NCBI GenBank assembly: GCA_950106755.1
Contig: OX467084.1
Location: forward strand, 26,787,213-26,851,212
DNA length: 64,000 nucleotides
Direction of reading: 5' to 3'
DNA from: Climacium dendroides
Lineage: Eukaryota; Streptophyta; Bryopsida; Hypnales; Climaciaceae
Below are positions 20,019 through 41,600 of the stretch, one piece after another. Within the stretch, counting starts at the first letter, position 1; the number at the start of each line of letters is the position of its first letter. A model generated the notes under the pieces. The model saw only the letters and a list, made by a program, of their open reading frames with translations. It did not search any database and was not told the DNA's origin. The position numbers and the translations under genes were made by a program.

Positions 20019-21240
20019 AAGCATCACATCCCATGAAGGTGTGATCAGAGTAAAATTATTGTCAGTATGTGAAGCATAGTAATCTGTATAGTGCGCTTCG
20101 ATTGGAATCATCTCAAAGTGTTCGGTGTATGATCATCCTCAGTGATAAGATTATTCTCATCGCGAGCTTCTCTTGATCGTCCTTGCAGTTGTTTTTTTCA
20201 TTGTTTGCGACATCCTTCCCTGGTTTTCTTGCAACCCTCGCATGTGCTTTTGCAACAGCGTGTGGATTTTCTATCCGTCGTTGCAGTGGTGTGATCAATT
20301 GCGATCTGCGCGTATTAGTGTGCGTATCAGGGGGATATGATATCAGTTAACGGTTTGCAGATATCATGCTTTTTCTGTAACTGATAATTTTGAAAGTATT
20401 ATCAATTAGATGATAAATTTACTGAAAAGTGTAGAGATCTTTAACCCTTGCTGTGATCTGAGGACATTTCTCAGGACAATTGAGAGGGAAAGTGAGATTT
20501 GGACAGTCGTCATTTCAATGATCATGGTAGGGTATGCTGTCTAATTGTATACATGAATTGCATACCCTGGTTTGTCACCATTGCCCGGGGAATCTACATT
20601 TCCGTGAGTCCCCTCATATATCCTGCGCGTCTAAATGCGCAAGCATTTTACTCAAATTGCAAGTACTTAGGGTACGACCAATTGATGCGGTGTTTCGAGC
20701 TCCTTGAAATTCGCCGATGTAGAGTTTGTTTTGTGACTTTGTCCCAACGATACAGCCTAGCCGACTTCTAGCGGCCGTGGAGACCGTCATACGCTGTTAT
20801 GTGGACAGGTGCTTCGAACAGAAATCAATTCGGATTGGTGACTGTGGCAGTCCATGAGAGAAGCAAGGCCCATCTGTAAACTGGAAGGTGGTAAAGGTCT
20901 GAGACAGGCTGATTAGTTCACAAAGGTTTTTTCATGGTCTTAGGAAGAATCAATGGTAGTGTTAGCACGAACGCAGTCCCGATCACACTCTGCTGTCCAA
21001 ACTAATCTATTTCCTCATTGCAAAAGGTGAGGGAGACTCATCAATGACAATCCAATCTGGTGCTCGGTTGGCCCTGTTTGTATAAAGTAGCATAATGATA
21101 GAGTTGGGAAGTTCTGTACCTTAGTGCACTGTGAGCGCAACTACAGAGGTGTCGCTAGGTCAAGTAATTGCAGTTTGAACAATTTTTTTGCTAAGCATTC
21201 AGGTTATAATGCATCTTCAATGACTATAACTTGTTATTAA
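20019..21240. other. PSBX 3' flank, no further gene
   Basis: The first few hundred bases, of mixed composition, are probably the PSBX 3' untranslated region. The rest holds no recognisable gene. A 90-codon frame at 20499-20771 has no family resemblance. Confidence 0.5.
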
Positions 21241-22211
21241 CCCCTCAAGGCCCATGGACATTTTGGGTCTAAAGACATCATTGTTTTTCAAGCCTTATAA
21301 GTTTACTTGTCACTAAGGTATGAAAATCTCAACCGTACAATCTTGTAGTGTACATATTGTAGATGACGTGGATCAAATTTTGAGCCATTTGACCTTATAG
21401 ATTGTAAGATTATAATGTTTTAGTGTTGAAAAAAGATGCTGAAATTTTCCTAAAAACACATTTGGAGGTGAAATTTGATTTCTAAACCTACTCAAATGAA
21501 AAAACTTTGAACTAAAAAGTGTTTTGAAATCAACATAAAAACATATTGGTGAAAAAAAAATTCATAAAATTGACTCATTGTGTTTGCAAAGTAACTTTGA
21601 AATGTCAAAAAAATAGCAAAAAAGGGTGAAAAAAACACATTTAAGGCTGAACCTACTTCTATTAAAATACTTCTCAGTCACTTGTTACTTCTTTGATTGA
21701 CACAAAATTTTAGCCACACCAACTAGACAAGTATGCACAACTTTTGCCTCCAAAATTTTTGAAAACGGATACAAGATGAAGAAGTTACAAGCCGCCGAAG
21801 TTCACAATAACCAAAAACCGTTAGGGTTTTGAACTTCGAATTGCTACCAAACATTCAAAACAATTTGGATTTCCATGAAAATTTTACCACACAAACTAGA
21901 TTTCTAGAGGATCAAAACCCAACAAATTTTATTAAAAACGGACTCAAGATGAAGAAGTTACAAGCCCCCGAAGTTGCAGCCATGACAATACAGTGTGCTG
22001 AACTCAAATTGAACTGTGAACTTCGAATGGCTGCCACAAACTCAGTTCATCTTGAATTGCTCTGAAAATTTTACCACACAAACTAGACTAGTATGCGCAA
22101 ATTCTCCAACAAGTTTTATCAAATTCAGACATTAGATGCAAAAGTTACAACACTTTGTATTGTATTCCAAACTATGAGGGGCGGCTTTTGAGCCCCTTGG
22201 GCGTTGAGGGG
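21241..22211 (+). mobile_element. TTAA-flanked piggyBac-like non-autonomous element (copy 1)
   Basis: TTAA at 21237-21240 precedes CCCCTCAAGGCCCATGG, and the right end CCATGGGC-like GCCCCTTGGGCGTTGAGGGG is followed by TTAA at 22212-22215. The end sequences are inverted (CCCCTCAAGGCCCA versus CCCCTCAACGCCCA). The 971-bp interior aligns in reverse orientation with 39924-40889 along its whole length, with shared blocks such as GGAGGTGAAATTTGATTTC and CTCATTGTGTTTGCAAA. Inside, GAAGAAGTTACAAGCC and neighbouring text is repeated about every 180 bp. No transposase is encoded. Confidence 0.82.
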
Positions 22212-23647
22212 TTAATGTGTGTCTGCTATGAGTATCAAAATTGGTGTATATGGTACTAAAATAACCTGTTGGACAAAAATGTTCTGAATTATGGCTGAAA
22301 TAGCATTTTAAAAACAAATTTTGCACTGTAAGTAGAGTTTAAAGCCCTTTTCAGAAAGCTTTTTTATGTTGTCTCTAACATGCAATTGTTCTAGTGATAA
22401 TTCAATGGCAATTTAAATCATAATTTTTTTTTATCTTAGATAGAATTGAGTAAGAATTTTCAAAGTGAAAGGTGCGTAGGTAACTATTGATGCTCATAGA
22501 TTGGACTAGTCATCAATCTAAATCAACCTTTGAATAGAGCACGTTAGTCCAAAAAGTGATGAATACAAACTTAGTATGTGCATCTAAATTTGGCTCTCAA
22601 AGAATGGTCCACATCATGTTTTCATTTATTTTAGCCTTTATGTGAATGTATATTTTACTCAAGGGAATTGAGAACACAATTATGAGCAAGAAGCACATTG
22701 AACAGATTGTGATCCATTTCTAAAACTCTTAGCATTATTCCTAACAGATTTGTAGGGGCAATTCAAATCGCACATGCAAAATTCAAGCCTCCTATCGTAT
22801 CAACAATTGTTGGGACTATTGTGGATCAGAGTTTTTTTTGTTTTTATTCAAACCCTGAAATTTTGGCTACTTTCATTAATTTGGTGACTAAATAACAATG
22901 GCTATAACAAAAAAATATTGAAGTTACCATACAATACAACCTTAGGAAACAAATGAGGGATTGCTTCGTAGAGATAGTTCCCTTCAATGGAACTGACAAC
23001 CCCTTTGAGGGACAATGGCCATTGTTCATTATGAATGATGAATAGTATCAATATTAAAAAATAATTACCAAAAAAATTTATTAATAATTTAATAATAAAT
23101 AAATAATAATAAATAATAATAATAATAATAACTCAAAACTAGAAGCTTGATGTGGTCACACTAATGCTACATTGGATTCAAAATTTATGTAATTTTGTAT
23201 TTATTTTATTATTAAAATCTTCAATATTTTTTTTAGTATTTTAAAAATTATTTAAGTGAACCATCCTGCACTGATCGAGCCCTCTAGTTCACTGGCCCCT
23301 CAAAAAATCTTTTTTTTCTTTTTTTTCTTCTGGCCAACATCCCCTGTTATTTCTGCTATTCGTAGAATTATGGCTCCTTTGAAGGCTCATTTTTTTTCAA
23401 ATGAAAATTTAGTGTAATGATCCATGTGGTGAAATCCTCAACAACAAAGTGGCTACAACATTTACAAACGCAAGCAGATTCAAAGGCTCGTGACCAAAAT
23501 CAAAATCAAATAGATTTCTTTGCAACCAAGCATTTTATGCAAATCAACAAAAATTGGTTGTAATTAAAACAAAATATACAGTCACGAGAAAATAGTTTGA
23601 AAAATATATCCACAAGTTATAATCAAGTTCAAGTTAAGGCCAACAAT
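22212..23647. other. AT-rich intergenic DNA
   Basis: No gene or complete element is recognised. AAT/AATA low-complexity sequence lies at about 23060-23131. Confidence 0.5.
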
Positions 23648-23965
23648 GGGGAATTTTGTTAAAATGACAATCTAGCTGTAATTGTGGCACTTCTTATATT
23701 TGAGACTGTGCAGTATGAAATCTACACCATTCCTAGAGGTCCAAAATTTGTACCATGCCTCTATTTTTGAAATCTATAATTTTCCTAAATGGCACTTCTG
23801 TAGTTTAGACCATAAGGTCTACAATCTAAATCTATTCTAGATATTTGCCATCTATAGCAGTTCTAGATGTTTGAAATCAATATTAGCCCTCAATGCCATT
23901 TTTGTAATTTAGACAAGGTGGTCTAAAAATGACACATGGAATATTGCCATTTTAATGAAATTCCC
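23648..23965. mobile_element. GGGAATTTT-terminus MITE, copy 1
   Basis: The left end GGGGAATTTTGTTAAAATGA and right end GCCATTTTAATGAAATTCCC are inverted repeats of about 22 bp with one or two mismatches. The 318-bp interior has alternating blocks resembling GAAATCTA and CCTAGA, and encodes nothing. Confidence 0.8.
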
Positions 23966-24139
23966 TATAACATTACTTATGAAAGTTCAATTAGCCAGAT
24001 ATACGCACTTCAAATCCATGCACTAGTAATCGATCATCTATACTAGCTAAATGATATCACTGATTCTACACTAGTAACTGATCACATACACTAACTGTTC
24101 GCCGCATAGTCCTACACATTGAGCATCACCTACATATAT

Positions 24140-24561
24140 GGGAAATTTTGTTAAAATGTCAGCATTTCATGTGCCATCTTTGGACAACCTAGTCTAAACG
24201 GTAAAAGTGCCATTTAAGACAAGTATAGATTTCATGAATCTTGAACTTTTATAGATTTCAAAAATTTAGAATTGGTATAGATTTGAAACCACCAAATTTG
24301 AACTATAAAAGTAAAATCTAAAACAAAATTAGATTTCAAACCACCTAATTTGAAATGTAAAAGTAACATCTAAAACAAAATTAGATTTCAGACCACCCAA
24401 TTTGAACTGTTAAAATAACATGTAAAATAAATATAGATTTCAAACATTTAGGAAAGTTATAAATTTCAAACATCTAGGACTAATGTACATTTTAGACCAC
24501 CCAATCTGAACCATAAAAACTACCAAAGTTGCGGAATGACAACATTTTAATAAAATTCCCC
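24140..24561. mobile_element. GGGAATTTT-terminus MITE, copy 2, with 52-bp internal array
   Basis: The left end GGGAAATTTTGTTAAAATGT is mirrored at the right end by ACATTTTAATAAAATTCCCC. It is the second member of the local cluster. Its middle (24280-24487) is a 52-bp tandem array. Confidence 0.82.
24280..24487 (+). repeat. 52-bp tandem repeat, about 4 units
   Basis: Units begin GATTT(G/C)AAACCACC at 24280, 24332, 24384 and (degenerate) 24436, each followed by AATTTGAA-TGTAAAAGTAA-ATCTAAAA. The period is exactly 52 bp. Confidence 0.8.
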
Positions 24562-24717
24562 ATATGTACACTAGCTATTCAGTGCCTAGTCATGCACATC
24601 GAGCATCACTACATATGGTGACTGGAATCCCCAGAATTGTTCCAAACAAACCATCTGCTCATCCAATGATCTTTATAATGGACAATCTGCCTACCCACTC
24701 TGCCTAGACACACAAAT

Positions 24718-25334
24718 GGGCAATTTTGTTAAAATTGCAAAATTCCTCTACTTTGGCAGTTTTGATGGTTCAGAGTAGTTGGTCTGAAGTGTACAAACGT
24801 CCTAGATGTCTAAAATCTATACCATTTTTAGATGTGGTAAATCTACATCTGTGCTAGATATCTCTTTTACAATTCAAGAATGACATGCACATTATACATT
24901 GACTTTTAGTTAGACTCATCATCTTTGAGCTTGAATGCATCATCTCCCATCTTCATAATCAAGGTTTTGAAATCATCAATCCATCACCCTTTGGATTGAA
25001 TTCAATATCGAGATCCAATGAGTCTTAATGTTCTAATGAATCTCATTATGGGCATAAAGTGGCAAAAGTCCTCTACTTTGGCAGTTTTTACACTTCAAAG
25101 CAGGCAGTTTGAAGTGTACAAATGTCATAGATGTTTGAAATCTATACTTGTGTTAGATGTCACTTTTACAATTCAGATCATGTGGTCTAAAATCTACAAA
25201 AGTCATAGATTTTTTAAATCTATAAAAGTCCAAGATTCTTGAAAACTATACCTATCCTAGATGTCACTTTTACAATTCAGAGCAGGCGGTTTGAAAATGG
25301 CACATGGAATGCCGCCAATTTAATGGAATTCTCC
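24718..25334. mobile_element. GGGAATTTT-terminus MITE, copy 3, internally duplicated
   Basis: The left end GGGCAATTTTGTTAAAATTG and the right end GCCAATTTAATGGAATTCTCC match the terminal consensus of the two preceding elements with more mismatches. Internally the block CCTCTACTTTGGCAGTTTT occurs twice (about 24752 and 25071), and TAGATGTCACTTTTACAATTCAGA occurs twice in the right half. That suggests a duplicated or nested element. Confidence 0.65.
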
Positions 25335-27836
25335 ATCATTGCCTTTAGTTTTCATCAATTGATGTTGCAATTTTGGCAAAATCAACATGTTTTTTTGGAG
25401 AATGGCTAAAATACTCATACAAATTAGACAAAAAGAGACTCAATTACACATGCAACAAGAAGTCCCTCAAGTGAGAAACAATTTAGTTGGTGTAGTGAGC
25501 TATACAATGAAACCCTTTTCAAAAAGAAGTAGACTCTAGGATTTTTTTTCTTGACCCCATTCTTTAATCCCAAAATACCAAAGCTACATTTGGCCCAAAT
25601 GATATCAAAATTCTTGAATATGAGGCATGTCACTCTTTGTTCACCTTTTCTATTTCTTTTGGCGATGAAGCCAAGTTAGATAGGCCCCTAGAACAAAACA
25701 ACTTTATAGCCACATTTTATACTTCATGGTGAAGCCAACAACAACTTAATCGTTGAATTGCTACGTGATGAACTTGCAACTAATGATACTAGGATCAACA
25801 CCTTTGAGGAAGTTGTGCTTGTCTATTTGGCATCCACAATGTGCTACTAGGATTGTTTGCATTATAGTTGTTAGAAAATACCTCTTTAGAGAAGTACTTG
25901 GAACAGACTTTGGTTTCTTTCTAGGTATCTTTTCTTTCAAGTCTGCGAACACTTCCACAAGCAAGACTTCCAACAACTTAGATAGTAAATCAAGTCCAAA
26001 CTCTATTTGTGTTACAACAAGATTTGCATGACTTAAGATCCTCCTCTAGCTCCACCCCAAAACTATGGATAAATTTCTAACTTCTTTCATTCCATCCTAG
26101 GTAGAACCTATTTCTCCTGAAACATAGAGGTAGTTAAAGATGAAATAAAATAATCAAATAGAAGCATACTAGCAATCAATGAACATACTTTAAAGTTAAA
26201 GCACATGGGTTTAGAAAATCAAGAAACCCTAGTTAAAATAATGCACAAGGAGCAAATACAAAAGTGAACAAACCTTGTATTTCATAAATCCTACACAAAT
26301 TTTTAAAATGAATGCAATCAACCAAATGCTACTAAGTTCCACTTCCTATACTTGAACAAAATTCCTCAAGTACTTACTAATATAGAAAATATTCACAAAA
26401 AAGTGTAATTGTTGTTGGCAATGGATACCTTAGAATAAAAAGTTGTAATTGGCTACAATCCAAACTTGACACCCTATCAATGGCAAGAACGGATTTAAAA
26501 TATGTGGAAATTTGGCTCAAATTTGGAATTGTAAGCTATGTTTGATACAAAGCTTAACAATGATTGCAAATATAAGATAATAGGAATAAGCTATACATGC
26601 ATGGCAGACATGCACTATTAGTGATGATATTTAGGAAAGGTGTAGATCCTTGGCAAACAAATTTATTACCTTCCTTGTATTTTCTTAGAACTTGTCGTTG
26701 CTTCATACATTGTGTTGAATAATGATAAAATATTGCATGTAGAAAATAAACTACTATGGATTCTATAAAGGCCAAGGCTTATATGTACCAAGTACATGTT
26801 GGATAATTAAACTTTAATTGCATATTCAAAAAGTTTTTTGTCAGCAATGAAGCATAATATTAAAGTAGTGTATAGGTTTTGAAAACTACTACTTTTATGT
26901 TTGGAATTAGGTATGGTTTCAAAAATAAGTATAAGGAGAAATACAATGACAAATATGAGACAATCAAAGCAAGGGGAGGTCACTCTATGCATTTACACAA
27001 CTCACATGAGGCGAAGATTTTGGACCCTTTACTTACTTCGTAAAATTTAATTTAAAGAAAATTTTAAAATTTATAATAGGTTTTTCTACTTTGAAAGTTT
27101 GTATTTTGAATTATTGATATTTTTAAATCGATAATAATTAGTTACAAATTTTTGAAGAAAAAAGATACACTGTAGAGTAGAAAATAATTTTGGACCTCTT
27201 ACTTACTTCATAAAAAATTGTCTAAAAAATGAACAAAAAAAATCCTAAAAATAACTCTCTATTGAAAGTTTATTTTTCTCGAATATTGATGCAATGGTCA
27301 TCCAAATTTATTCTCTATAAATGTTTGAGTTGAAAAACATGCCATTTCAGTTCATTTTTCAACCTATAATAATTGTCATTTTAAATGTCATTTAAGTTGG
27401 GAATTTTTGGCAATAGAAATCTATAATCATTATTAATCAAAGTTCAAAATTATAAGTTGAAATTATAGTATATTCCAAAGTATTTAGGGGGTCAAAAAAT
27501 CACTTCGCCACGCGTGGTAAACAAAATCCCCATAGAGTGCCCTCCCCTCGAATCAAAGAGTTTAGCATACTAATCAATATCTCAAAGAAGCTTTAGCAAA
27601 AAAAGTAGCAAAAAATATAAATATCTAATTTTTTGGAAATAATTACTCTAGTCTATCTTATAAGGCAAAACAAGAAATTGTCATCTTTTGAATTGTTGAA
27701 TATATATAAGTTGAACAAATTTAGAATAAAGTGGCAAATGAAATAAATTTTCACATGTATTTTGGTTAACTAATTATTGAAAAAAATTATAGTTGGTTAA
27801 AACAAAATTATATAGCTTCCTATTTTGGGACAATAT
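25335..27836. other. AT-rich intergenic DNA, no gene recognised
   Basis: No family is recognised in either strand. At 25420-25980 the minus strand contains successive medium-length frames (69 and 71 codons) separated by stops, which may be a decayed coding remnant; I cannot identify it. Confidence 0.4.
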
Positions 27837-28828
27837 ATGCCCCAAAAGTCGCAGAAGTGGGGTTTGAAGGTTTGGTGTTTACTAGATTCAAAATCAAAAT
27901 TTGTTTTGAATTTTGAAGTGTATTGTGAAAAAAGTCATGTGGTTGAGGAAGAAATGCAATGACTGGGGGGGCATGGCAAAGCACAATTAGTGCATAACAT
28001 TGTATTGTGCTTGCTTGCACCAATTGAGGGTAAAGGGCAAGTAATTGTCATGGATAATTTTTTCTCTAGCGTTGCCTTATTCATAGATCTACTAGAAAAC
28101 CCCCCGTATACAATCAGTACAATGACGTCAAATTAGGTGGGTCTTCCTCAATCTCTCAAGAACACAAAAGATTTCAATAGAAATGAGCAAGGCACACTAG
28201 ATTGGCGCATATATGATTCGAGGCAAATGAGTAGCATTATATGGGAAGATAAGAAAGCGGTTCTTATCATTTCGACGCATGCACTTCCAATTCAATTTCC
28301 ATGGGAATTTCCACTTGCAACTATTCCACATCAAAATGATTTTGAACGGGAGAACATTTAGACATCACCAATGCATTTTTAGTATACAACTCACATGCGT
28401 GGTGTAGATGTGGCTGATCAATTACAAGCATCATATACATGTTAGACGTGATTCTACAAGTAGTGGCACCGTGTTTTTTTTTCTCCTTGATACAAGCATT
28501 GTGAATATGTATATACTTTATATGGACAAATGCAAGGCGAAAGATCTTCTAAAGCATCTAATGAAGCATTTGCAGTTTCGCATTCAATTGTGTGACTCTA
28601 ACTGCAAGATGACATGGGAAGAGACGTCAAGAATGTGAGGAACCACCCCGTCATAGGCAAGTGTGCTATCCTACATTTACGAAGGACCATAATCCTTGCG
28701 TGGTTTGCAACAATGGCTCATCTCCATTGACATGACCAAAGACATATTGCTGGCCTACTTGTGGAAATAAATTCATGTGTTGGCACAAGGGGTGTTTCCA
28801 AATTTTTCATGAATGTTTGAATGGCTAA
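27837..28828 (+). pseudogene. decayed piggyBac-type (DDE_Tnp_1_7) transposase
   Basis: From 27837 to about 28470 one frame carries piggyBac-family landmarks in the expected order: MPQKSQKWGLKVWCLLDSKS, then FVLNFEVYCEK, EGKGQVIVMDNFFSSVALF (with the Asp of the DNxFTS-like motif), GLPQSLK, WEDKKAVLIIST, and MRGVDVADQLQASYTC (with the Asp of the GGVDxxDQ motif). After a shift at a T-run near 28470 it continues FFFLLDTSIVNMYILY, the hydrophobic block that follows in the family. After another shift near 28620, a C-terminal Cys/His finger follows: CVVC, CWPTCG, MCWHKGCFQIFHEC, then TAA at 28826-28828. At least six internal stops (first TGA near 27960) and two frameshifts make it non-functional. 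The N-terminal third is not recognisable, and I saw no terminal repeats directly flanking it. From general knowledge, piggyBac transposases cut and paste at TTAA. Confidence 0.82.
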
Positions 28829-29647
28829 GCCATTTGCAATGTGAGTGCAATTTTCATGCACCAATCCAACAAATATTTCGGGAATTGCTTTAGAATTTGT
28901 TTTCTATAACTTTATCCAAAGACCTCTAAGTGTCATTGGATATATAGATATATCTTCACTAAATGAAAGAATAAATTCTAAAATAGGGCTTTTTTTTTTT
29001 TGGAGGGGATACACAATTATCTAAAAAAAATTAGGAGCACTCAGAGGTGTAACTATGAATTAATTTTTTTTAATTGTAGTATTGCAGATATTGTGATTGG
29101 AGAATGAATTTTCTTATAGTTTCATTTGTTGTACTCCTCTAGGATACCTTATGAATAAATAATGATATTCTAAAGTATTCTAATTTTCTGGACCTTCTAT
29201 GGTGAACTAGGAATTTCCAAAGTCTTTACAAGTGGTGAAAAGTTATATACCCATGAAAACCATTGATATTATTTTTGGAGCAGGCACATTCAATTGGCCA
29301 AGATGTCCTAAGAAGAATGCATTTTTGCAGTTCATATTTTGAGAAGTTTGCATGCCATCTATTGCAGATGTACATGGCACATGGAGAAGAACAATCCAAT
29401 TTTGATAGGAGCCAACCAACGAAAAAAATCAAAGAATGAACACCATGTGGATGGAGATAATGTAGTATGTAGTTTTCAGGAGTTGATTGGCTTTCTAGAG
29501 AAATCTGAACTCCTTGAATAAATTTTCAATAAATTTTTAGAGAAAGAAAAATGGAATTGGCATTCAATCCAAGTCGTTTCATATTTTTTGGACCTTTGTG
29601 GAATTAGTTACAAAATTTTGAAGTTGATAGAGAAGTACATTAGGAAA
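28829..29647. other. AT-rich DNA with unidentified dispersed repeat
   Basis: A plus frame from 29339 to about 29650 is interrupted by one TAA at 29519 and includes FQELIGFLEKSELLE and then EKEKWNWHSIQVVSYFLDLC. Its second half (about 29455-29640) is related to 8505-8690, so it is a dispersed sequence that may once have coded. The family is unknown. Confidence 0.4.
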
Positions 29648-29855
29648 AAGCCCCCCACTGCAACACTATTGTTGCAATATTGTTGCAATGCTTGAACAAT
29701 AGAGTAAAAAAAACATATTGTTATAGTATTACAACAATACAATTTTAATGGAGGAGTGTACTCTATCCATTGAAAGTATACTATCGTAGTATTGCAACAA
29801 TATATTTTTAGTACTTTATTGTTCAAGCATTGAAACAATATTATTGCAATGGGAG
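29648..29855. mobile_element. foldback element with ~75-bp arms
   Basis: The left arm (CACTGCAACACTATTGTTGC, with ATTGTTGCAATGCTTGAACA further in) and the right arm (TGTTCAAGCATTGAAACAAT, ending ATTGCAATGGGAGG) are reverse complements with scattered mismatches over about 75 bp. The centre is about 55 bp. There is no coding capacity. Confidence 0.75.
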
Positions 29856-30299
29856 GTACCTTCTTAATGTAGGTGGATAGAAATACTTGATGATGCATTG
29901 TAGGTGAATGATGTGGTGAGGTGGAGGTCCTATGCAGTGGAACACAGTAGGAAACATATTGGGAACACAAGGAAACATATTGGGTCCTTTTTTTCTATTG
30001 CCTATGAGACTTTGGCTCACCACGGGCTTCTAAATTCAATAGAAATTAGAGATTTTAGATTTTTAAAAATATTTTGGGGGAAGTTTGTCAAACATAAATA
30101 AATGTTCTAATCTACCGTTGGGATTTTGGAATTTTGAAATTATGAGGTAGAAAACTTGTTAGTAAAAAAAAGATAGTGTATTGTCAATTCTTAGGACATT
30201 GTCTCATTGCAAGATTTTTTGGGATGTGTTTCACAAAAAAAAATTCAGTGAAATTTGGTGTACATATATGTAGAATTACCTTCATTATGATCTATTGTT

Positions 30300-30588
30300 A
30301 ATTTCAAAGTCCTTAGTGCAAAAATTTTCCACAAATGACGGTCAAAGGCAGCTGAAATTGTAAGGCAGAGTTCAAAAAAAACTTTTCTTCTAACTTTGAA
30401 TGCTCATATCTTCCAATCCGTACGGTCAAATTTGATGAAATTTTTACCACATATTCTCAAACAAGTTAGGTACAAGATCCTATGGTTAGATTTTCTTGAA
30501 AAGTATTTTTTTGGTTTCTTAGGTGAGCACAACAGAAGTGGCAATTTTGAGTGATTTTTGATAGAAAACACCCTTGGGGCTTTAGGGG
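30300..30588 (-). mobile_element. partial TTAA-flanked piggyBac-like element (right end only)
   Basis: The right end GGGCTTTAGGGG is followed by TTAA at 30589-30592. The preceding approximately 190 bp (CTCATATCTTCCAATCCG, CAAACAAGTTAGGTACAAGA, then ATAGAAAACACCC) match the same family at 55930-56130 and, inverted, at 50458-50700. I could not place the left end. Confidence 0.55.
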
Positions 30589-30592
30589 TTAA

Positions 30593-31900
30593 GCTATCTT
30601 TTATTGTGACTTTTTCATTTTCCAATATCTAAATTTGAGTTTTCTTTTACCTATTCAAAGTACTTTTGAATGTGCTTCCAGTGATAAATTTGAAGTTATA
30701 ATTAAAAAATAGTAAAAAATCAAAATGAAGGTGAGGTATCTATTTATGATAGTCCTTCCATAATGGCTTCATACCTATTGTTGACAACCATTGCATTAGA
30801 AGTTTTCTAGAAGACTACAAATTCCTAAACTATTGGGAATTTGGGAACGTTGCCACATTAGCAATTTAACATAGTCATGCAACTGCCATGTCAGATATTA
30901 TTATTTAATTACTTTTCAAATTAAAATTGATTTCTTTAAAAAAATTAAAATTGTTTATTATTTTATATTCAGAATTGATTCACAACAAGGAGAACAACTC
31001 TAAAACAATTTTCTAGAGGCCTCAAATCCCCTCTAATGGAAGCACTATTCATTGAAAAAGATTCTCTATTTGTATCTTCTTGTCCACTATTTGTATTTTC
31101 TTTTCCATCCTTGTTTATAGGAAGAAGTGCCATAGCTAATTGTAATAGGTGAGTCTACGAGACTAGAATGGGGTCCAAATGAAAAATACACATTTATATT
31201 GAAAAAAAATTCATTCTTTGAGAAAAATATTCTTTTTTTCTACATTCTTCTTCATCCTTCTATTTGCACATGTTGTGTTCATTTTCTCAATAAATTTTCT
31301 ATATCCTACAAGCTAAAATGCTTAAGTTATTATAAATAGGTACTTCTACCATATATTTGTTGGGGTAGTATACCAATCTTATTGAGGGACGTCCTTAACA
31401 ATAACCCACACTTCCATAGCCCTTGTAAATATTAGATAATCACTAAGCCACACTAGTGGTCAATAGGTTATATATTAGATAACCAATTTGCCATTGGCGC
31501 AGCTCATTGGTTATCATACATAACTGGTTGTACATTATTCAATCACAACCTTTGATCTTCATGATCCAAGGGTGTAGGAAGCAAGTTGAAAGGAAAAAGG
31601 TTATGAGTTGCAACTTGTAATGGCAATGGTGATGGATTGCCAATGGAAGAGTGCCACATTAGTGTTGAAAAAGTCAACAACCAATTATGATCCACAATAA
31701 TTGCACATAGCCTCAATAATTGTACTTTTGAGTATATAATAGTGTGGCCAGATCATATAGTGTGGTCTGTTTTCTTCTCCCTGGAAGATTGTTTGCTCTA
31801 AAGCGACCATGTTCTAAATGCGACCAATATCTAGGAGAGGATGACATGTTGCTTGAAATATGTATTACAGTCAATGATGAGTTGGGTAGGCTTAAATGGT
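30593..31900. other. AT-rich intergenic DNA
   Basis: No gene, RNA or complete element is recognised. Confidence 0.5.
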
Positions 31901-34060
31901 CGCTTTGAGAGAAACCTTCAAATTCTAGGTCTTCACCGTCGTTTTAGGGTTTAGGGTGCCTCCGTTAACAGGAGCGTCTTTGCCTTACAGCGGCTTCTTG
32001 TTTGGGAGGTCCCCGCTTGGACGATGGCAAGCTGCCGTGTTGTTCTTTTGCATTTGTGTGACCTGCATTTTCTTGCGAATAGTCTACTTTTTTGTTTCAT
32101 TTTTTTATTATTAGAAGAGAAGACGATGACGAGAAAGTGTTGCAAGTTGTAGTTGTTCACGCAGCAATGGCCGTTAACAACGCTTTCCTGAACCACTAAG
32201 GCGCCGGACGGTGAAAGATGTGAAGCTTGCTGTTCAGGAAGACGTCGTAATCGTGGCCGATGGCTGTGATTTGGGAAAAGAGGCGGGGCGGACACCTCGA
32301 GGTTGCGCTTCGCCTCTTAGGGTAAGCTTGTTTTTGAAGTTTTGATGGAAGGAAACTGTAACGTGTATGGTATATATCTAGCTAACTCAAATTTGCCTTC
32401 GAGTTTTAGTGCTCCATCCTCGAGTTTTTATGGTTCTCTCACTGCTTCGGTTAATTTGGAGGTTCGTGAAGGTCTAAGTTGTTCTGTTCGCGACTGAAGC
32501 AGGGTTTTTTTGGCGTGCTTTCTTTCTCAAACTAGATGATTTTGACTCCAATGAATTTTTATGAAGCTAAATATTATATGTATATGCAGAGAATTTGTAG
32601 TAACGGTCCATGCAAGTATTTCATTCTCTTGATTTTTTAATTCGTTACTTAGCAATTTCTTCTTTCATCACTCGTCGATATGTGTTTTGGTGGATTTCAC
32701 CTATTTGGCCTCTCCTTGTCCGAACTGATCTCTGAATTCTCATATTCTAAAGTGTATTTCACTTCTGATTTTGAATGCTGGGTGACAGTTGATGAATTTA
32801 GCTTTGGGGAGCAGGAGGTATACTTCAACACTTGAAGGAAAGATTTCTCATGATAGTTTACATGGGAATTGGATGTGTATAGCAATGGTATGACGTGTTA
32901 CGAGATTTTAACTAGACGTTCTTCATATGATGACCGTGATAATCTCGCAACATGTCATACCATAGCTATTCACGTAATTTTCGATGTTCAAAAAGGGAAA
33001 CTACCAGAATTACCACCGTCTTCTTCTGTTTGTAAGAGACGTTGTCATTCTGATACGTTGTGGAGACCTAATTTTGAGATATATGCAAGGAGTTAAGGAA
33101 AGAAAAATCGTCGATGTCATCTCTGAACTCAAACTCACGAAGAGGCGACAATTTCCGAGGTACGCTATCATCCCTGCTTGTCTGAGTTTACTTGTGATTA
33201 CTTGGTTTGTTTCTGCCACATACATTGTTTGACCGACTTACTTCAAAATTGAAGATGTTGAAGTGCTTCATTAGTTCAGGAAATTATAGCCGGTCTAGGG
33301 TGAACTTTTTGTTTGATTAGGTTTTTGTGTTGTGCACATTTTTTACCCACGAAATTCACGGCATTTGAAGAATCGATCCTCTCTGGGAACAAGGATATTT
33401 ACGGAACAAGAGATTTCTAAGTGGACTGGTACTAGAATCCCAGCTTGAAAATACAATGTAGAGACTATATTGTCATTGAATATGGAATCTTCCTTTGCAG
33501 TTACTTATCCATTGTTTGCCTTCAGGAACAATATACTTTTTTGTGCTCTTCTCTGCGTTGCTGCTCGTGTCTTTTGGGTTGACAGGTTTGTTGTGAATCA
33601 TCTGCTTATTAAGGGCATACTACGGTATCCTGAAACATACCTACCTGGAAGGCTAGCTTGGGGTACTGAGTACTCCGTATTAAAAATCAGCGCGGGTCCA
33701 CCTGGGCTTATAACTCAAAATATTATACGCCGTTGGATCCTGGAGTTTGGATTTGTGCAGGGTTTCAGTGAACTAGGGTTTCGTCGTCTCTTCCGATTTG
33801 ATTCACTCCACAAGGATTCTGTACCGAACCTGCACAGCCGCTCTTCTCGCGCTCCTTTCGGTTTCCTAGTCAGTGCTTCTAGAGAATGTCTCTGCCACCT
33901 TCTAGTAGTCCCTGCGTTGTTTCTAGTGAGTATTACATGAGCTTGTTGCATCAATTTGTGCTGAACTGAGTAGCACAAGATTAATTGGAAGAGTTGCTCT
34001 TCATGGACAAACCTATCCTCACTTTGTCTACATCATCCTTGAAGGATGACTTGTTCACCA
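31901..34060. other. mixed-composition region containing a kinase remnant
   Basis: Base composition is higher than in the flanks, with many CpGs at 31900-32330 and 33640-33930, typical of the gene-bearing parts of this window. Apart from the kinase fragment at 32866-33096 no coding sequence is recognised. A 156-codon plus frame at 33470-33940 has no family resemblance. The region may be a decayed kinase gene and its flanks. Confidence 0.45.
32866..33096 (+). pseudogene. protein kinase C-lobe fragment
   Basis: The frame ELDVYSNGMTCYEILTRRSS matches kinase subdomain IX (the DVYSxGMxxYEILTG block of plant Ser/Thr and TKL-type kinases). After an expanded spacer come KGKLPELPPS and CHSDTLWRPNFEI, corresponding to the CWxxDPxxRPxFxEI block of subdomain XI. 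The frame ends with TAA at 33094-33096. Part of subdomain X is missing, and the first Cys/Trp context of the last block is altered. No N-lobe, catalytic HRD loop or DFG motif was found upstream, so this is a fragment or an exon of a decayed gene. A functional single-exon piece of a larger, badly diverged gene cannot be fully excluded. Confidence 0.7.
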
Positions 34061-35295
34061 ATGCGGTGGCAGAATTGGTAGGCTTGGTATTTTATCTTCT
34101 AAGCATACCATAATTGCACAATGAACACTTGTAATTTGAGGAAGGTTTTGGAACTGTATTGCATCTTTTTGTTTCACACCGCTTTTGTTATTCTGAATCA
34201 CAAACTTTTCTTCCAAGTCAAAGGCCGTAGCAACTCCATCCGTCCCAAAATTAATCCGGGGTTTACAAATATACTTGTCCCAAATTTTGAGCACCTTGAA
34301 GCAAAAGAATACACAAATTTCATGCTTGAGAGACTATATAGCAGTTCAATCCCTTGAAAGGGAATTGAAATGCAATCTCTAACCAACCAAAGGTGAAGAA
34401 TTCAACCCACAACTATACAAAAATTAGAACTAACAAATCTCTAATTGAGAATTTCTTGAATTGGAATTACAAGACATTGTTGGAATTGAATATAGAGGAC
34501 ATCAATGGATATCATTACACCAATGCCTCAAAGTATGATCAAAATTAATACCAATTAGAGCAATTTCAAAAAGGGTAAACATTTGTCAATTTCACTATCT
34601 GTTTTCAACATGCGTCACTTCACTTTTGAGTTCCATTCTTTCATGCCTAGTGAGTTTAGTAGAAGTTACAATAACTATGCAATCCTTTGAAAATAGGAGC
34701 TATTCACTTAGGAACAATAGCAAGTGAGTAGCTCCTAGGAATTCTGTGTGGTTATAGTTACTAAATGTCAGCCCTACAGCAGTCCATTAAATTCTTTATC
34801 AATACTCTGCAGACTTCAATTCTTCATGTATCGGAAAAGCAAAGAAGCATCAAGTAATACTATTTAAGAGTATTTCTGTTACTACATAGGTAGATCCTTA
34901 GGAACAACACTCTTTAAGGTAGCAACACCTATAACCGTCACCTATAGAATATTGGAAAATCCTTAGGAATACCACTCTTTAAGGTAGCAACACCTATAAC
35001 CGTCACCTGTAGAATATTGGAAAATCCTGGGAAGTGAATAGACATGAATATCAAACCCTAGTGTTGGTATTAGGTGTATTGCTAGTCGATTCTTTAAAAA
35101 TTCATAACTTATATTCACAATGTCCAAATAGTACATTTGAAAGTGCACATGAATTATTTTCTCTTGCTGGTAGGGTCCAATAATTTGTTGGATGTATATT
35201 AGTAGACATCATGTCCAAAACCCTTAAACTAATAGTTGTGGGTGCTACTACCTTAACACCAAGTGAGAACATACCTTTATCCCTTAAAAACACTA
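34061..35295. other. intergenic DNA with a Stowaway-like end and a local duplication
   Basis: At 34224-34250 CTCCATCCGTCCCAAAATTA resembles a Stowaway-type terminus. A 65-bp tandem duplication lies at 34893-35031. No gene is recognised. Confidence 0.5.
34893..35031 (+). repeat. 65-bp tandem duplication
   Basis: ACTCTTTAAGGTAGCAACAC starts at 34909 and again at 34974. The repeated unit includes CTATAACCGTCACCT and AGAATATTGGAAAATCCT. Two nearly identical copies imply a recent event. Confidence 0.9.
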
Positions 35296-35526
35296 CACTA
35301 AATAGTGAAATTAGGTCAACATTCCACACTATATAAATATGTACAGTTAGTGTAGATGGATGCAACAATGTAGGAACCATGTGTGTTGCATGGGTTGGTG
35401 CATTGGTTCATGGCTCGGGTTTCGAGAATTGCTTGTGCCTCCATCTCGACAAGTGGTGAGTCACGTGGCAACTCTCCTGAGTAAGGCAACCTAATTGTTC
35501 AGGCAACCTAATTTCACTATTTAGTG
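35296..35526. mobile_element. TA-flanked CACTAA-terminus MITE (copy B)
   Basis: The left end CACTAAATAGTGAAATTAGG and right end CCTAATTTCACTATTTAGTG form a perfect 20-bp inverted repeat, with TA immediately outside both ends. The 231-bp interior (GGAACCATGTGTGTTGCAT, GGTGCATTGGTTCATGGCTC) is shared with 57033-57285. Confidence 0.9.
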
Positions 35527-35832
35527 TACATAGCAATCTATCAAGTGGAAAATGCTGACTTTGTTTAGTGAACTGCAACCTCACAGATGAAGCCAACTTG
35601 TATCAACTTGTATCAACTTGACCCAATGTAAGTAACGTACTGTTCGAAGAAGCAAAAATTGTGAAGATTGGGTGTTCATAACTTCGCTCGCATCCTTTCA
35701 GTGGCTTTGAAAGGATTAATTTCATCGCCGTCCATGATGCAAATTGTTAGATGGCTGCATGAACGCCGATGGACTTGTGCTGCGGCGTTGGAGCTTCTTC
35801 AACAGGACATGAGGAAGGGTCTGACATCCAGA

Positions 35833-36460
35833 GATTCTTCCAATCTAGATTTATTTGCATTCAAAGGATTCGCTACAGATTTAGATGTAATTTGTAGTCG
35901 AGGATTATTCTAGTCTAGATTTATTTGTATTCAAGGATTCTCTACAAATCTAGATTTATTTGCATTCAAAGGATTCTTCTAATCTAGATTTATTTGTTTT
36001 CAAAGATTCTCTACAATTCTCTCCGTTCAAGGATTCTTCCAATCTAAATTTATTTGTGTTTGAGGATTCTCTACAAATCTAGATTTATTTGTGTTCAAGG
36101 ATTCTCTACAAATCTAAATTTATTTGAATACAAGGATTTTTCTAATCTAAATTTATTTGTATTCAAGGATTCTTCCAATCTAGATTTATTTGTATTCAAG
36201 GATTCTTCCAATCTAGATTTAAGGATTCTCCCAATCTAGATTTATTTGCATAGAAGGATTCTTCCGATCTAAATTGATTTGTATTTAAAAATTCTTCTAA
36301 TCTAGATTTATTTGTATTAAAGGTTTCTTAAAATCTAGATTTATTTCCGTGCAAGGATTCTCCCAATCTAGATTTATTTGCATTCAAGTATTCTTCAAAT
36401 CTAGATTTGTTTGCTTTAATTTAGGGATTCTTCAAATCTAGATTATTTGTATTCAAGGTT
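35833..36460 (+). repeat. 33-bp minisatellite, about 19 units
   Basis: The unit is close to GATTCTTCCAATCTAGATTT followed by ATTTGTATTCAAG. Most units are 31-34 bp. Where the period is exactly 33 bp, open frames show an 11-residue periodic peptide (SNLDLFVFKDS), for example in 36054-36239. That is a consequence of the period and not evidence of a gene. Units vary at the CTTCC/CTACA position, suggesting two interspersed unit types. Confidence 0.9.
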
Positions 36461-36569
36461 TTTTGAAGCCCTTGTAAATAGATTTAAGATGTGATTGAAT
36501 TGTATCTATTATTAAAATCTAAGTTTATTTACATTTTTGTAATAGATTGAAGATGTATGGAATCCTAGT

Positions 36570-36686
36570 GTACATTTGACAAATGATTGGTTCATTAAGA
36601 CTCAATGAATACATTTACTGTATGTAAGTACATTTGACAAATGATTGATTCATTAAGACTCAATGAATACATTTACTGTATGTAAG
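36570..36686 (+). repeat. 58-bp tandem duplication
   Basis: GTACATTTGACAAATGATTG begins at 36570 and 36628. The two copies differ by about one base, so the event is recent. Confidence 0.9.
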
Positions 36687-37048
36687 TAGAAAAGTTGAAG
36701 TATTTTCAAGTATAGATTGAAATTGAAGCTCAAGTGTAGAAATGCTCTTAAATGCATAGCAATATTACAACTAAGGTATGTATACCTACAATTAGCATTA
36801 TTCTTAATACAACAACTATATTAGGACCAAAAACCACCGTCACTAAAAATTAAATTATGATGATATACATGCAAGATGTGTATATGCAACCAAAACATGA
36901 ATTCCAAGTGTTGTTTTTGGGTACAATTAGAGACATTATTTTCAAAAGTCATAACTTAGTCATACGGTGTCTATATAGTAGAAACTAAAGCCTGCCAAAA
37001 TCCTATTTCAATTGCCTATAAGATCCAATCAAAATAATGTGTGTTTAA

Positions 37049-37969
37049 CCCATAAAGGAAGAATGTTTTAGAAGAGGAAAAGTTCTAAACTACCAATTTT
37101 TGATGCATTCTTCAAAATATTTAATAAATAAAAATTGAATTCCAACCGTACAAAAGTTTATTAAACAAGGAAGGCTTACTTTCAGCCCATTTGTCCGTGT
37201 GGGTTGAAAGATCATAATGTTCATTCAAGTGAAAAGAATTTTTTTTTTCATTGCAGAAAACAAAGTCAACAGACTTTGAGCACCCATAGTTGAATATTTT
37301 TGCTTTACACAAAAATGAGGATTTTCATCATTCATAAGTATATGATATTAGATTTGTTCATGCAAAATTTCAAATGCAACTAAGATGCCTAACTTACTCT
37401 AAATCACCCTACTAAGCAAGGTCAAGAAAACTAGCAATAGTCTAGTCATTTTTTGATGATTTCTAGTACAATGAAGAATTTTTTTACTTGAAATCAAATG
37501 GTGAAAAATTGAAGACAAACATTTGGAATATGTGGGAGAAATTTCAAAAACTTTGACTTCATAGACTGCAAGATAATAGGGCTTGAAGTTAGAAGAAAAT
37601 GTTTTTTTCTCATAACCACCCCAACATAGCTAACAAAGTTTTGACTCCTTTTAGAATGTGATTTGAGAACTAAAGTTTTTTTTAATAACTATATACTTAT
37701 TAGTTGTATACATGCCAAATTTCAAAAATCAACAAGGTTTTTAGCAAAAGATGCCACAAAGATGCCCAAATTGTCCAAATTGAAAAAAAGGTCAAGGCAA
37801 CATTAACTTTTGACATAGGCACCCAATCAAAAAAATTATACTCCCACCAAGGAAGTACATATTTACAATTTGTGTCAAAATTTTGTAAACACTTGATCAA
37901 AATTGACTTTTGTAGGAGCTTAGATGGATTTTCAATTGTCCATTCAATGAACAATTGGCTTTTGAGGGG
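37049..37969 (+). mobile_element. TTAA-flanked piggyBac-like element (copy 2)
   Basis: TTAA at 37045-37048 precedes CCCATAAAGGAAG, and the right end GGCTTTTGAGGGG is followed by TTAA at 37970-37973. The 921-bp length is close to the 971 and 966 bp of the two other long copies. An internal block (CATAGACTGCAAGATAATAG) is related to the family blocks at 50620 and 30400. The left end is more diverged, so this call is weaker than copies 1 and 3. Confidence 0.6.
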
Positions 37970-37973
37970 TTAA

Positions 37974-39003
37974 ATATAATAGCTATGCTTTGGTACCTTG
38001 AAAGTTCATTTATTTTTTTACAACCCTCTCTAAATGTTTTGTTTTTTTCTAAAGAATAATTCAATCATGGCTTGTGGTATTATGAGATACACTCTCTTCC
38101 ATATATTGTTGGAAATAGGTACTTTTATCTAAAATACCAACAATAGTTGGCATCAAAAAACCATTTCAAAGGAATCTTAATTACTTTTGAACAAGATGAA
38201 CATTAAACTACAAATGGTTCTATACAAAGATCAAAATTGTTTAGTATAAGGTGGATGAGCCTATTATAGGTAGAGAGGTTGTCTTGGACCCTTCGAATGG
38301 TTGCTAAAGAATTTTTTTAATTGATTATAAATTGTAAGAGAAAGCAATAGCAATATAAGTTTTTGAAAAAATATGGAATTTTTATGAATTTTGAAGTGTA
38401 TTGCTCAAATGGTCCAATTAAGTTTTCAGATTGTTGCAAAATCATTACAAAAAATTTGAGCCCTGTAGAAGGCTTGTTAAAAAAATTTGTTGATCATCAT
38501 TGGTGATTTTCAGAAGTGCACTATTCCCCTGTACCCGCTCAATTTGAAAGATGGGCAGTGCACGATCAGGCTCAAGAATGGACCATCTAGATGAAATCAC
38601 AAATCCTACTGGCCCCAGAAGTCCAAAATTCCTAAACCACACTGACAACAGTTAATTCACTTCTACACATCACATTCAATAACAATAAGAACTACCTTCC
38701 CTTACATAGAATGATGTGGAATATTTCTACACTCATTAAAACTAATGCTTTAATTTCCTCATTGTAATTTGAACAACTTTCATGATTTGTTCAAGAGTGA
38801 GAAGACAAATCTTTATATACATTTTGGGTGGTAGGAGGCAAAGTAAACAATGTGGGATAAATAAATTAAAGTTAGTAGGAGCTCAACCGCTCATAGGAAA
38901 GTCAAATTAAAGCAAGAATTCTATTTAAAGTAAAATTTCAGGCCTCATTTAGTCATAGTAAAATAGAAAATTTCAAAAAACTTTGGACTAAAAAAAGTTA
39001 GAA
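37974..39003. other. AT-rich intergenic DNA
   Basis: No gene or complete element is recognised. Confidence 0.5.
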
Positions 39004-39195
39004 AATCTATTTAAACTTCATCTCCAAAAATCCGTTTTATATTTTAAGACTCCAACCAAAAGTTATGGACATTTCAAAGAGGCATTGGAAGGGAGATTTT
39101 ACATCTTGAAACATCCTCTTTAAATTTTGTCCATAACTTTTGATTGAAGGTTTGAAATATGAAACGGATTTTTGGAGATGAAATTTAAATAGATT
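39004..39195. mobile_element. foldback element with ~65-bp arms
   Basis: The left arm 39004-39070 (AATCTATTTAAACTTCATCT, CCAAAAATCCGTTT) is the reverse complement of 39129-39195 (AGATGAAATTTAAATAGATT), with few mismatches. The loop is about 58 bp. Confidence 0.8.
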
Positions 39196-39923
39196 TAGAT
39201 AAAAAAAAAATGTAAACCATATGTCTATTGCCATTGACAATCCTGGCACGCAGGGAATTAAAGAACCATAGGTTTTTGAACTTTCCAAAGTTGTGCTGGC
39301 ATTGTAAATCATTCCAATGCAAACACCATGAGAATCCTTTGAGTCCCTGATGATTTACAATGCCAACCCGTGTATGTTCATTTATTGAATAAGTTATGTT
39401 ATAGGTTGAATGCAAAATTATAATAGAGCCATTTCTTAAGTGAAAACATAGTGGTTGGTATAGGATGATTCAACTTAGTTTCTTTAAAATATTTAGAAAC
39501 TTGCAAGATTGTTTATATTAAACTACACTATGATAAGTGGAAAAAAAGACCTTACAAAACCTAAGGAAAAACCTGTCAACTCATAACAAACTTTTTTCAC
39601 ATAAATGAGATTTGAGCTACATTAGGCTTAATCATTGGTCACAATCATGTTTTAGGTGATGATAATGGAGTGATTAGTGACCACAATAGAAACTTGCACC
39701 TTTTGAGTGTAAATCCATTACATGAAATGACATTTTTAGACCTTTGTGTTGTGGCTCACTTCAAAAATTCACTACAAATTCTTACTTTGTTGAAAAATTA
39801 TAATTATAATTGCTCTTACATATTCTCCCATTTATCATTTTGTAGAATATATTTAAAATTAAAAATTCCAACTATAGTGTGAGGATAAACTAATATATTT
39901 TTTTGTAAGATAATTTACTTTAA
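39196..39923. other. intergenic DNA with a short stem-loop
   Basis: At about 39293-39367 TGGCATTGTAAATCAT pairs with ATGATTTACAATGCCA around a loop of about 37 nt, giving an imperfect hairpin of about 18-20 bp. No gene is recognised. Confidence 0.5.
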
Positions 39924-40889
39924 CCCCTAAACACCTTAGGGGACCAAAAGTGTCCCCACATAGTTTTAAGTCCAATTTAAAGAACTGTAGCTTTTGCATC
40001 CAATGTCCAAATTCAATCAAACTTGTTGAAAAATTTTCACTCTCTTTTTCCATTATTGTGGCAAATTTTCTAGATCAAATCAAGATGTATTGATTTCTTG
40101 GAAGCTAATCAAAGTTCATAGGTTCAATTTGAGTTCACCAAACTACATTTGAAAGCTGCACCTTCTAAGGCTTGTATTTCCTTCATCTAATTTTAGTTTT
40201 CAATAAAATTTGTTGGATTCTATTTCCTTTGAAGTTTAGTTATTATGGTCAAATTTTAATATCAATTTAAATTGTTTTGAATGTTTGGGAGCAATTCAAA
40301 GTTCAAAATCCCAACATTTTTGGATTACATTGAACTTTGATGGCTTGTTTTTTCTTCATATAGTGTCTTTTTCCAATAACTTTTTGGAGAAAAGTTACAC
40401 ATACTATTCTAGTCTATGTGACTAAACTTTCATATCAATTGAAGACATTATGAGTGACTGAGAAGCATTTTAGTAGAAGGAGGTTCAACCTTAGGTGTGT
40501 TTTTTATAACTTTTTTTTGCTATTTTTTGACATTTCAAAGCCATTTTGCAAACACAATGAGTTGGTTGAATGATATTTTCTTTCACCAATATGTTTGTAT
40601 ACTAGATTTGAATCACTTTATAGTATAATTTTTTTCCATTTGAGTAGGTTTGGAAATCAAATTTCACCTCCAAACGTGTTGTTAGGAAGATTTCAATATC
40701 CTTTTTCAACACTAAAACATTATAATCTTGCAATTGATGTGGCCAAATGATCCAAATTTAATTCACATCATCAAAAACATATACACTACAAGATCATAGG
40801 GTTGAAATTTCTATATTTAGATTTAGATTTATAACACTTTAAAAGCAATGATGTTTTTGAACCCCAAAAGGACCTTGGGCTATTAAGGG
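39924..40889 (-). mobile_element. TTAA-flanked piggyBac-like element (copy 3, inverted)
   Basis: TTAA at 39920-39923 precedes CCCCTAAACACCTTAGGGG, and the right end GGGCTATTAAGGG is followed by TTAA at 40890-40893. The 966-bp body is the reverse complement of copy 1 at 21241-22211 over its full length, diverged by perhaps a fifth of positions (visual estimate). It has no transposase. Confidence 0.82.
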
Positions 40890-41600
40890 TTAATTTCTTT
40901 GTAGTTGCCAATTCTAAGATTTGTTCTAAACCTCATTGGTGTAAATACATTCAAAGATATTCAGTTTGACCATCCCAATCACCAACTTTTTGACTCCACC
41001 ACTTTAATCCATAAACAACACTGCAGCCATTTTCTCGTCAATGAATCATATAAAATCCTTATGTGTAAGACAAAAGTACAACTATTCATCTTTGAAATTT
41101 TTGCATGAAAAAGGGAGGTTTTGTATAATAGTTTGATTTTTAATGAGTGCTTTAGGATTTTTTTTTAAACCTACTATTCAAATAATGCCAAAAGGGATGA
41201 TTTCCATGGTCATAGGCTTATCCTTTAAGAGTTAATTAGTTGTCCTATCACATAAGATGAATGGCCAAGCCCCATTGCAAATAATGAGCCACAAGTAGAG
41301 ATCCTAGAGCTAGCTTATGGAATTTAGTACAATATGCTACCTTCAAGACAAACATGCATCAATTTTGGCTACCTTGAGAGTGAGTAGTATTAAAAAAAAT
41401 ATAAAAAAGAAAGGATTTTGCAAGTTGTAAAGGATTATTGAGAGTACTATAAAACAAAACTGACTAAATAGATACTAATTCCAATGTAGAGGAAGTCGCA
41501 AATTGGCTATCAAATTCTACTATTTGTTGCTATCTTGGCTAAAATCTAATTTTTTCAAGGATTTTTTCCTATGTACATTTAGCTACTGAAAATTTTAAGT

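What the first reader, a model, noticed from the sequence alone, without database searches (positions are those of the whole stretch)
21237..40893. Family of ~970-bp TTAA-flanked elements with CCCCTnAA termini: candidate plant piggyBac MITEs
Two elements (21241-22211 and 39924-40889) are full-length inverted copies of each other. Each is bounded exactly by TTAA and has inverted CCCCT(C/A)AA...GCCCA ends. TTAA duplication plus a terminus starting CCC is the established signature of piggyBac superfamily transposition. A third element (37049-37969) has the same plan and size. None encodes a transposase, so they would be non-autonomous passengers.
Basis: partly seen in the sequence, partly recalled or inferred. 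Interest (0 to 1): 0.9.

Follow-up and report, generated by a model that had tools for sequence, protein, structure and literature searches.

The report
Young piggyBac passengers in a plant
These are short, non-coding jumping genes of the piggyBac kind, recently multiplied in a plant (probably a moss-like one) whose genome also carries piggyBac enzyme genes, and close relatives of the short elements wear ends like those of different enzyme lineages.

Summary
Element A (21237-22215) has 22 genome copies at 97-100% identity that match its whole length, TTAA to TTAA, and 18 at 85-87% (40 of 2787 candidates scored). Two insertions have related unoccupied sites with a single TTAA. The genome is a plant's, probably a bryophyte's, and gives 119 piggyBac-transposase (PF13843) matches, all over cut-off. 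At 6 of 7 transposase loci where I read both sides, the gene lies between TTAA-CCC ends 5.0-5.8 kb apart. The 3' ends of one transposase clade, CCCCTCAACGC, equal A's 3' end.

Corrections: B (39920-40893) is a 76%-identical relative. C (37045-37973) is a different repeat with loosely similar ends. A shares only ~17-29 terminal bp with the elements compared, and every copy seen of the best-matching transposase clade has in-frame stops.

Less expected: MITE subfamilies 81-88% identical carry ends like those of transposase clades only 48-58% identical in protein. The A2 consensus matches one autonomous 5' end at 34 of 36 bases, then at 12 of 36. This suggests end exchange; direction is unresolved. 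piggyBac-like elements in plants are already in print.

The parts
21237..22215 (+). Element A (subfamily A1), 979 bp including both TTAA; non-coding MITE with CCCCTCAA(G/C)GCCCA ends
   Evidence: Sequence; 22 copies at 97-100% over 1-979; unoccupied relatives of the sites of two sister copies, L003 and L008
21237..21240 (.). Left TTAA target-site copy of element A
   Evidence: Sequence
22212..22215 (.). Right TTAA target-site copy of element A
   Evidence: Sequence
39920..40893 (-). Element B, 974 bp, inverted relative of A (76% identical), TTAA at both ends
   Evidence: Sequence; alignment
37045..37973 (.). Element C, 929 bp, TTAA at both ends, CCC-starting ends; not homologous to A or B along its length; partial repeat relatives exist
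   Evidence: Sequence; partial match 74.5% over 349 bp in L077. The genome-wide search with C did not complete
55787..56405 (.). Probable further TTAA element D, 619 bp, ends CCCCTAAAGGACCA / TCCCTAAAGGACCA
   Evidence: not searched in the genome
305..305 (-). Single element end TTAACCCCTCATCGCCTAAGG; the element would run off the window's left edge
30592..30592 (-). Orphan element end TTAACCCCTAAAGCCCCAAGG; best TTAA partner within 2.5 kb matches only 6 of 17

Best explanation
A and B are non-autonomous piggyBac-superfamily elements (MITEs) of a plant nuclear genome, probably a bryophyte's. A transposase of this superfamily, made elsewhere in the genome, binds the ~17-20 bp CCC-starting ends, cuts the element out and joins it into a TTAA, which ends up once on each side. 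Shown here: TTAA boundaries, single-TTAA unoccupied sites, many near-identical copies of subfamily A1, piggyBac transposase genes in the same genome, and 5.0-5.8-kb elements with this domain between the same kind of ends. Inferred: that the burst was recent, that these transposases move A1, and which one does. A1 best matches clade c1 (3' end CCCCTCAACGC); a one-mismatch alternative is clade c2 (CCCCTCACCGC), which has uninterrupted frames.
For: 22 copies at 97-100%, all matching query bases 1-979. The 8 fetched copies are 99.2-99.9% identical pairwise, TTAA-bounded, with different flanks. Joined flanks of L003 match 2 unoccupied places and those of L008 match 38; I fetched 10 of these 40 (2 + 8), and all 10 span the junction with one TTAA. 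PF13843: 119 matches, all over cut-off; none in 14 control genomes. Uninterrupted frames of 1055 aa (L027/L028) and 1115 aa (L017/L019); the 976- and 975-aa parts inside L027 and L017 hit piggyBat (9c0f, E 1.1e-36 and 8.1e-33) and the transposase 6x67 (E 1.8e-24 and 3.9e-23), and three acidic positions align in the alignments shown (that these are the catalytic triad is recalled). TTAA-bounded transposase elements: 5832, 5105 and 5101 bp, 5378 and 5371 bp, 4999 bp. The 5105/5101-bp pair is 91.4% identical over its whole length, and its flanks differ. 14 of the 20 nearest c1-like transposase loci, and 10 of the 30 best PF13843 loci, show an outward TTAACC(C/T)-type end 3' of the gene; the end class follows the transposase tree.
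Against: All six loci of the c1 clade (the four with a readable 3' end, L069-L072, and L073 and L083) have in-frame stops in the transposase domain (introns were not considered, and only 126 of 672 candidates were scored), so the enzyme behind the A1 burst was not identified. A1 shares only ~17-29 terminal bp with those elements. At the seventh locus read on both sides (L017) no 5' end was found. Of the 51 proteins found with the L027 transposase, those with an organism name are all animals; none bears a plant name. No movement was observed; the unoccupied sites are at related repeats, not at the same locus in another individual.
Confidence: 0.93

Rival explanations
1. Subfamily A1 is moved by a clade c2 transposase (or another clade) rather than c1, i.e. 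by cross-mobilisation.
For: c2 ends differ from A1's 3' end at one of 13 positions; c2 holds uninterrupted frames (L074 503 aa, L076 431 aa) while the c1 copies seen all have stops.
Against: A1's 3' end matches c1 at 13 of 13 and c2 at 12 of 13; its 5' end matches c1 at 12 and c2 at 11. The margin is one position.
Confidence: 0.35
2. The matching ends of the MITE subfamilies and transposase clades come from plain common descent or drift, not from end exchange: for example, the MITE lineage descends from a clade-4-like element and the other subfamilies changed.
For: Direction is not resolved: A1, A2 and (L004_old + B) form three groups on an unrooted tree. A2's 5' end favours c4 over c5 by only 11 to 10 of 13, B's ends favour no clade clearly, and the c2-type MITE is one copy. 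A weak shared stretch near 44-52 bp links MITE 3' ends to autonomous 5' ends (by eye).
Against: MITE sequences differ by 12-24% while the transposase clades whose ends they resemble are 48-58% identical in protein. The A2 consensus matches E035 at 34 of 36 and then 12 of 36; A1 matches at 23, the older copy at 26 and B at 24 of 36. A1 and A2 differ at the same three end positions (4-6) on both ends.
Confidence: 0.35
3. The elements belong to another superfamily that happens to duplicate TTAA, or are ordinary segmental duplicates.
For: TTAA is short and common in AT-rich DNA.
Against: TTAA boundaries and differing flanks in all 8 fetched young copies, single-TTAA unoccupied sites, and piggyBac transposase genes within elements with the same kind of ends.
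Confidence: 0.03

Closest known systems
piggyBac superfamily DNA transposons (piggyBac of Trichoplusia ni, piggyBat)
   Same: TTAA target duplication, ends starting CCC (recalled as family traits), DDE_Tnp_1_7 transposase in the related large elements; single-TTAA unoccupied sites
   Different: A and B carry no transposase; the plant transposases are remote from the two solved ones (phmmer E 1.1e-36 and 1.8e-24 for L027) and sit in longer open frames (1055 and 1115 codons, against chains of 578 and 594 residues)
piggyBac MITEs reported for angiosperms (named as one of seven MITE superfamilies in PMC10004981; passage seen)
   Same: Non-coding, piggyBac-type, plant host
   Different: Here the host is probably a bryophyte, and transposase-bearing elements with like ends are found in the same genome; I did not see the primary angiosperm data
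Tourist/Stowaway MITEs of plants
   Same: Non-autonomous elements using ends recognised by a transposase made elsewhere
   Different: Those duplicate TAA/TTA or TA/AT and belong to PIF/Harbinger or Tc1/Mariner (PMC10004981, passage seen)

Membership tests
piggyBac superfamily | TTAA duplicated at insertion | tested here: met
   TTAA on both sides of 8 of 8 fetched young copies; unoccupied relatives of two insertion sites with one TTAA, 10 of 10 fetched out of 40 found
piggyBac superfamily | Terminal inverted repeats starting CCC | tested here: met
   A: 15 of 17 matching terminal bases starting CCCC; A2 copies start CCCT at both ends in 11 of 12 fetched; the 12th (L090) had no readable end in the fetched piece
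piggyBac superfamily | Element or its autonomous partner encodes a DDE_Tnp_1_7 transposase | tested here: met
   A and B encode none; PF13843 matches lie between like ends in E012, E025, E032, E018, E027 and E035, 6 of 7 loci read on both sides. That one of these is A1's partner is inferred
piggyBac superfamily | Seamless excision restoring TTAA | not testable with these tools
   Unoccupied paralogous sites show the state before insertion, not excision
MITE | Short, non-coding, with inverted ends, many uniform copies | tested here: met
   979 bp, no ORF of 130 aa or more, 22 copies at 97-100%
MITE formed by internal deletion of a found autonomous element | Interior shared with that element | tested here: not met
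   Convincing matches only at the ends, ~17-36 bp, with the six elements compared (one search's printed table was cut at 4000 characters)
Mobilised by clade c1 transposase | Enzyme acts on A1 ends | not testable with these tools
   End match only

The most novel reading that the evidence does not exclude
One MITE lineage has persisted by exchanging its ends: relatives with 81-88% identical sequences now carry terminal sequences like those of transposase lineages that are only about half identical in protein. In subfamily A2 about 36 bp of a clade-4 autonomous 5' end appears grafted onto a shared MITE body, and the first positions of the other end fit the same clade. Passenger elements could thus follow successive transposases, a re-tooling of ends rather than co-divergence.
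Probability: 0.45. Interest if true: 0.7.

Novelty: new member of a known kind. Interest (0 to 1): 0.55.

Why it matters
It adds what is probably a bryophyte to the hosts of recently active piggyBac passengers, together with uninterrupted transposase frames from which plant-native piggyBac systems could be studied. The end-class pattern makes a general question testable: how do MITEs outlive their transposases? The candidate answer, changing ends to suit another enzyme, predicts which enzyme moves which subfamily.

Tried and rejected
Rejected: C as a third copy of the same family (no match to A or B). Rejected: A1 as an internal deletion of E012, E025, E032, E018 or E027; of E035 too only end sequences match convincingly. 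Considered: contamination of the assembly. Four chromosomal stretches, covering 5 of the 9 chromosomal PsaA/PsaB rows, were fetched. Against plastid contig C123 they are 98.9% (C34), 96.0% (C3), 91.1% (C2) and 87.3% (C39) identical; against C88 the first two are 82.3% and 79.1%, the C2 stretch gave no match (its C88 counterpart was held only in part) and the C39 counterpart was not held. So two clean comparisons tie the nuclear genome to C123. psaB of C123 scores best against 8htu, 6l35 and 7ksq (that these are moss Physcomitrium is recalled); psaB of C88 has the same three on top at lower scores, and the window's PsbX is closest to 8c29 (recalled as spruce), so the bryophyte label rests mainly on psaB. 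Telomere repeat CCCTAAA at the starts of C1 and C3, not at C2.

Not achieved: a genome-wide search with C, one with B, and a count of the pattern TTAACCCCTCAANGCCCANG (the machine did not complete). Paper searches on piggyBac in plants. They listed the fern Ceratopteris, whose repeat table lists PiggyBac (passage); in the one moss paper whose passages I read, both hits are 'piggybacking' in another sense. On end exchange: listings only, nothing read, so I claim no absence from print. The library is partial.
Full report
What is there. Element A (21237-22215) is 979 bp with TTAA at each edge and ends CCCCTCAAGGCCCATGG / CCCCTCAACGCCCAAGG. Element B (39920-40893) is its full-length inverted relative at 76% identity. 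Element C (37045-37973) also lies between TTAA and has CCC-starting ends, but it gave no match to A or B; it is a different repeat with at least a partial relative in locus L077. None of the three holds an ORF of 130 aa or more. The end motif TTAACCCCTNAA occurs 7 times in the window against 0.09 expected.

Genome copies. A search of the window's own genome with A scored 40 of 2787 first-look candidates and gave 43 matches: 22 at 97-100% identity, 18 at 85-87% and 3 at 71-81%, so counts are lower bounds. All 22 young copies match from base 1 to base 979 of the query. The eight best were fetched; they are 99.2-99.9% identical pairwise and all bounded by TTAA with different flanks. Two young copies (C34, C37) abut an older relative with a 4-bp overlap, and a third (C1) overlaps a partial relative by 4 bp. 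In the C34 case, seen in L004, the shared 4 bp is TTAA; the other two were not read.

Empty sites. I joined the flanks of fetched copies at a single TTAA and searched the genome (40 of 4015 candidates scored). The flanks of L003 matched two unoccupied places at 92-94%. The flanks of L008 matched 38 copies of a repeat at 91-97%. I fetched 10 of these 40 places: in all 10 the alignment runs through the junction with one TTAA; most of the L008 relatives differ in the length of a T/G run a few bases before it. L001, L002, L006 and L007 gave no junction-spanning row, which says little given the cap, and L004 and L005 were not properly tested.

Transposases. PF13843 gave 119 matches in the genome, all over the curated cut-off, while 14 control genomes gave none. 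Frames of 1055 and 1115 aa without stops exist, each in two places that are nearly identical. Their sequences match piggyBat (9c0f) and the transposase 6x67 in the Protein Data Bank, with three acidic positions aligned (that these are the triad is recalled). I read both sides of seven transposase loci. Six lie between TTAA-CCC ends: E012 5832 bp (C40:3006365-3012196), E025 5105 bp (C1:12930019-12935123), E032 5101 bp (C38:21084293-21089393), E018 5378 bp, E027 5371 bp and E035 4999 bp (C1:2628627-2633625). At the seventh, L017, only a 3' end was found. E025 and E032 are 91.4% identical from TTAA to TTAA and their flanks differ, which fixes the element boundary independently.

Relatives of the L027 transposase. 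A search of public proteins gave 51 matches; the three best (39-46% identical) are unnamed, and the rows with an organism name are animals at 29-36% identity. No row bears a plant name.

End classes. Of the 20 best loci found with a clade c1 transposase fragment, 14 show a recognisable end 3' of the gene: CCCCTCAACGC in c1 (4 loci), CCCCTCACCGC in c2 (5), CC(C/T)CTGAGC in c3 (3), CCCTA(A/G)ACCGCCCA in c4 (2); 6 showed none that I could class. On the transposase tree each class falls in its own clade, together with loci whose ends were not read; the four clades have bootstrap 91-100, while the branches between them are weak. Protein identity between labelled loci of different classes is 46-58%, and 48-58% among c1, c2 and c4.

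MITE subfamilies. A1, the young subfamily, has CCCCTCAA(G/C)GCCCA, nearest to c1. The one older copy beside L004 has CCCCTCACCGCC at both ends, nearest to c2. A2, fetched as 12 copies of which 11 could be read, has CCCTAGA(A/C)(G/C)GCCCA at 16 of 22 ends and 1-3 changes at the rest, nearest to c4. Over 13 positions the 3' ends match the named clade at 13; the margin between c1 and c2 is one position, that of A2 for c4 is three at the 3' end but only one at the 5' end (11 against 10 for c5), and B's ends favour no clade clearly. Yet the sequences of A1 and A2 are 87.6% identical, and A1 and the older copy 81.3%. The A2 consensus matches the 5' end of E035 at 34 of 36 bases (single copies 29-34) and then at 12 of 36; A1 matches that end at 23, the older copy at 26 and B at 24 of 36. 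This looks like end exchange. The direction is not settled, because the three MITE groups form an unrooted triple, and common descent with change in the other groups remains possible.

Host. The starts of C1 and C3 are arrays of CCCTAAA, a plant telomere repeat (recalled). Plastid fragments in two chromosomes match plastid contig C123 clearly better than the second plastid contig C88; two more match C123 without a full comparison. psaB of C123 scores best against 8htu, 6l35 and 7ksq, which I recall as moss Physcomitrium. A PsbX-coding stretch lies at 19911-20012, about 1.2 kb before A. I therefore call the host a plant and probably a bryophyte; the species is unknown.

Literature. One review passage names PiggyBac among seven angiosperm MITE superfamilies (PMC10004981, passage seen), another lists it among plant DNA-transposon superfamilies (PMC10794571, passages seen), and a third paper states that piggyBac-like elements are found in plants (PMC8086355, passages seen). 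The kind is therefore known. What is added is a young burst with single-TTAA unoccupied sites and transposase-bearing elements in one probably bryophyte genome, and the mismatch between MITE relatedness and end class.

Verdict. Real, piggyBac-type, recently active (inferred from identity), a new member of a known kind, with an unexpected end pattern worth a dedicated study.

Noticed in passing
L004 (C34:33567148-33569103); C37:20457526-20459469; C1:1370675-1372348: Three of 22 young A1 copies overlap an older family member by exactly 4 bp; the C34 case is a shared TTAA with the 3' ends facing. This may be more than chance; not tested formally.
   Followed up: partly
G000 contigs C88 and C50 (L052, L058): A second plastid sequence: GC 0.44 in L052 against 0.34 in L051 of C123; the C50 piece is 96% identical to C88 and 78% to C123. 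psaB of C88 has many residues that would suit C-to-U RNA editing (by eye). Probably another plant's.
   Followed up: partly
window 19911-20012: PsbX-coding stretch (PF06596, 37.8 bits) on the + strand in an open frame 19764-20018, upstream of element A.
   Followed up: partly
window 55787-56405: Probable 619-bp TTAA element with an internal inverted repeat of 120-bp arms (56123-56242 / 56267-56386).
   Followed up: no
window 21704-22150: Degenerate internal repeats about 174-187 bp apart within element A (70-80% identical), also seen in its older relative.
   Followed up: no
L017 and L019 (C40, 76 kb apart); L027 and L028 (C3, C35): Pairs of nearly identical loci (4111 of 4131 and 4105 of 4119 identical bases) with uninterrupted transposase frames.
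   Followed up: partly
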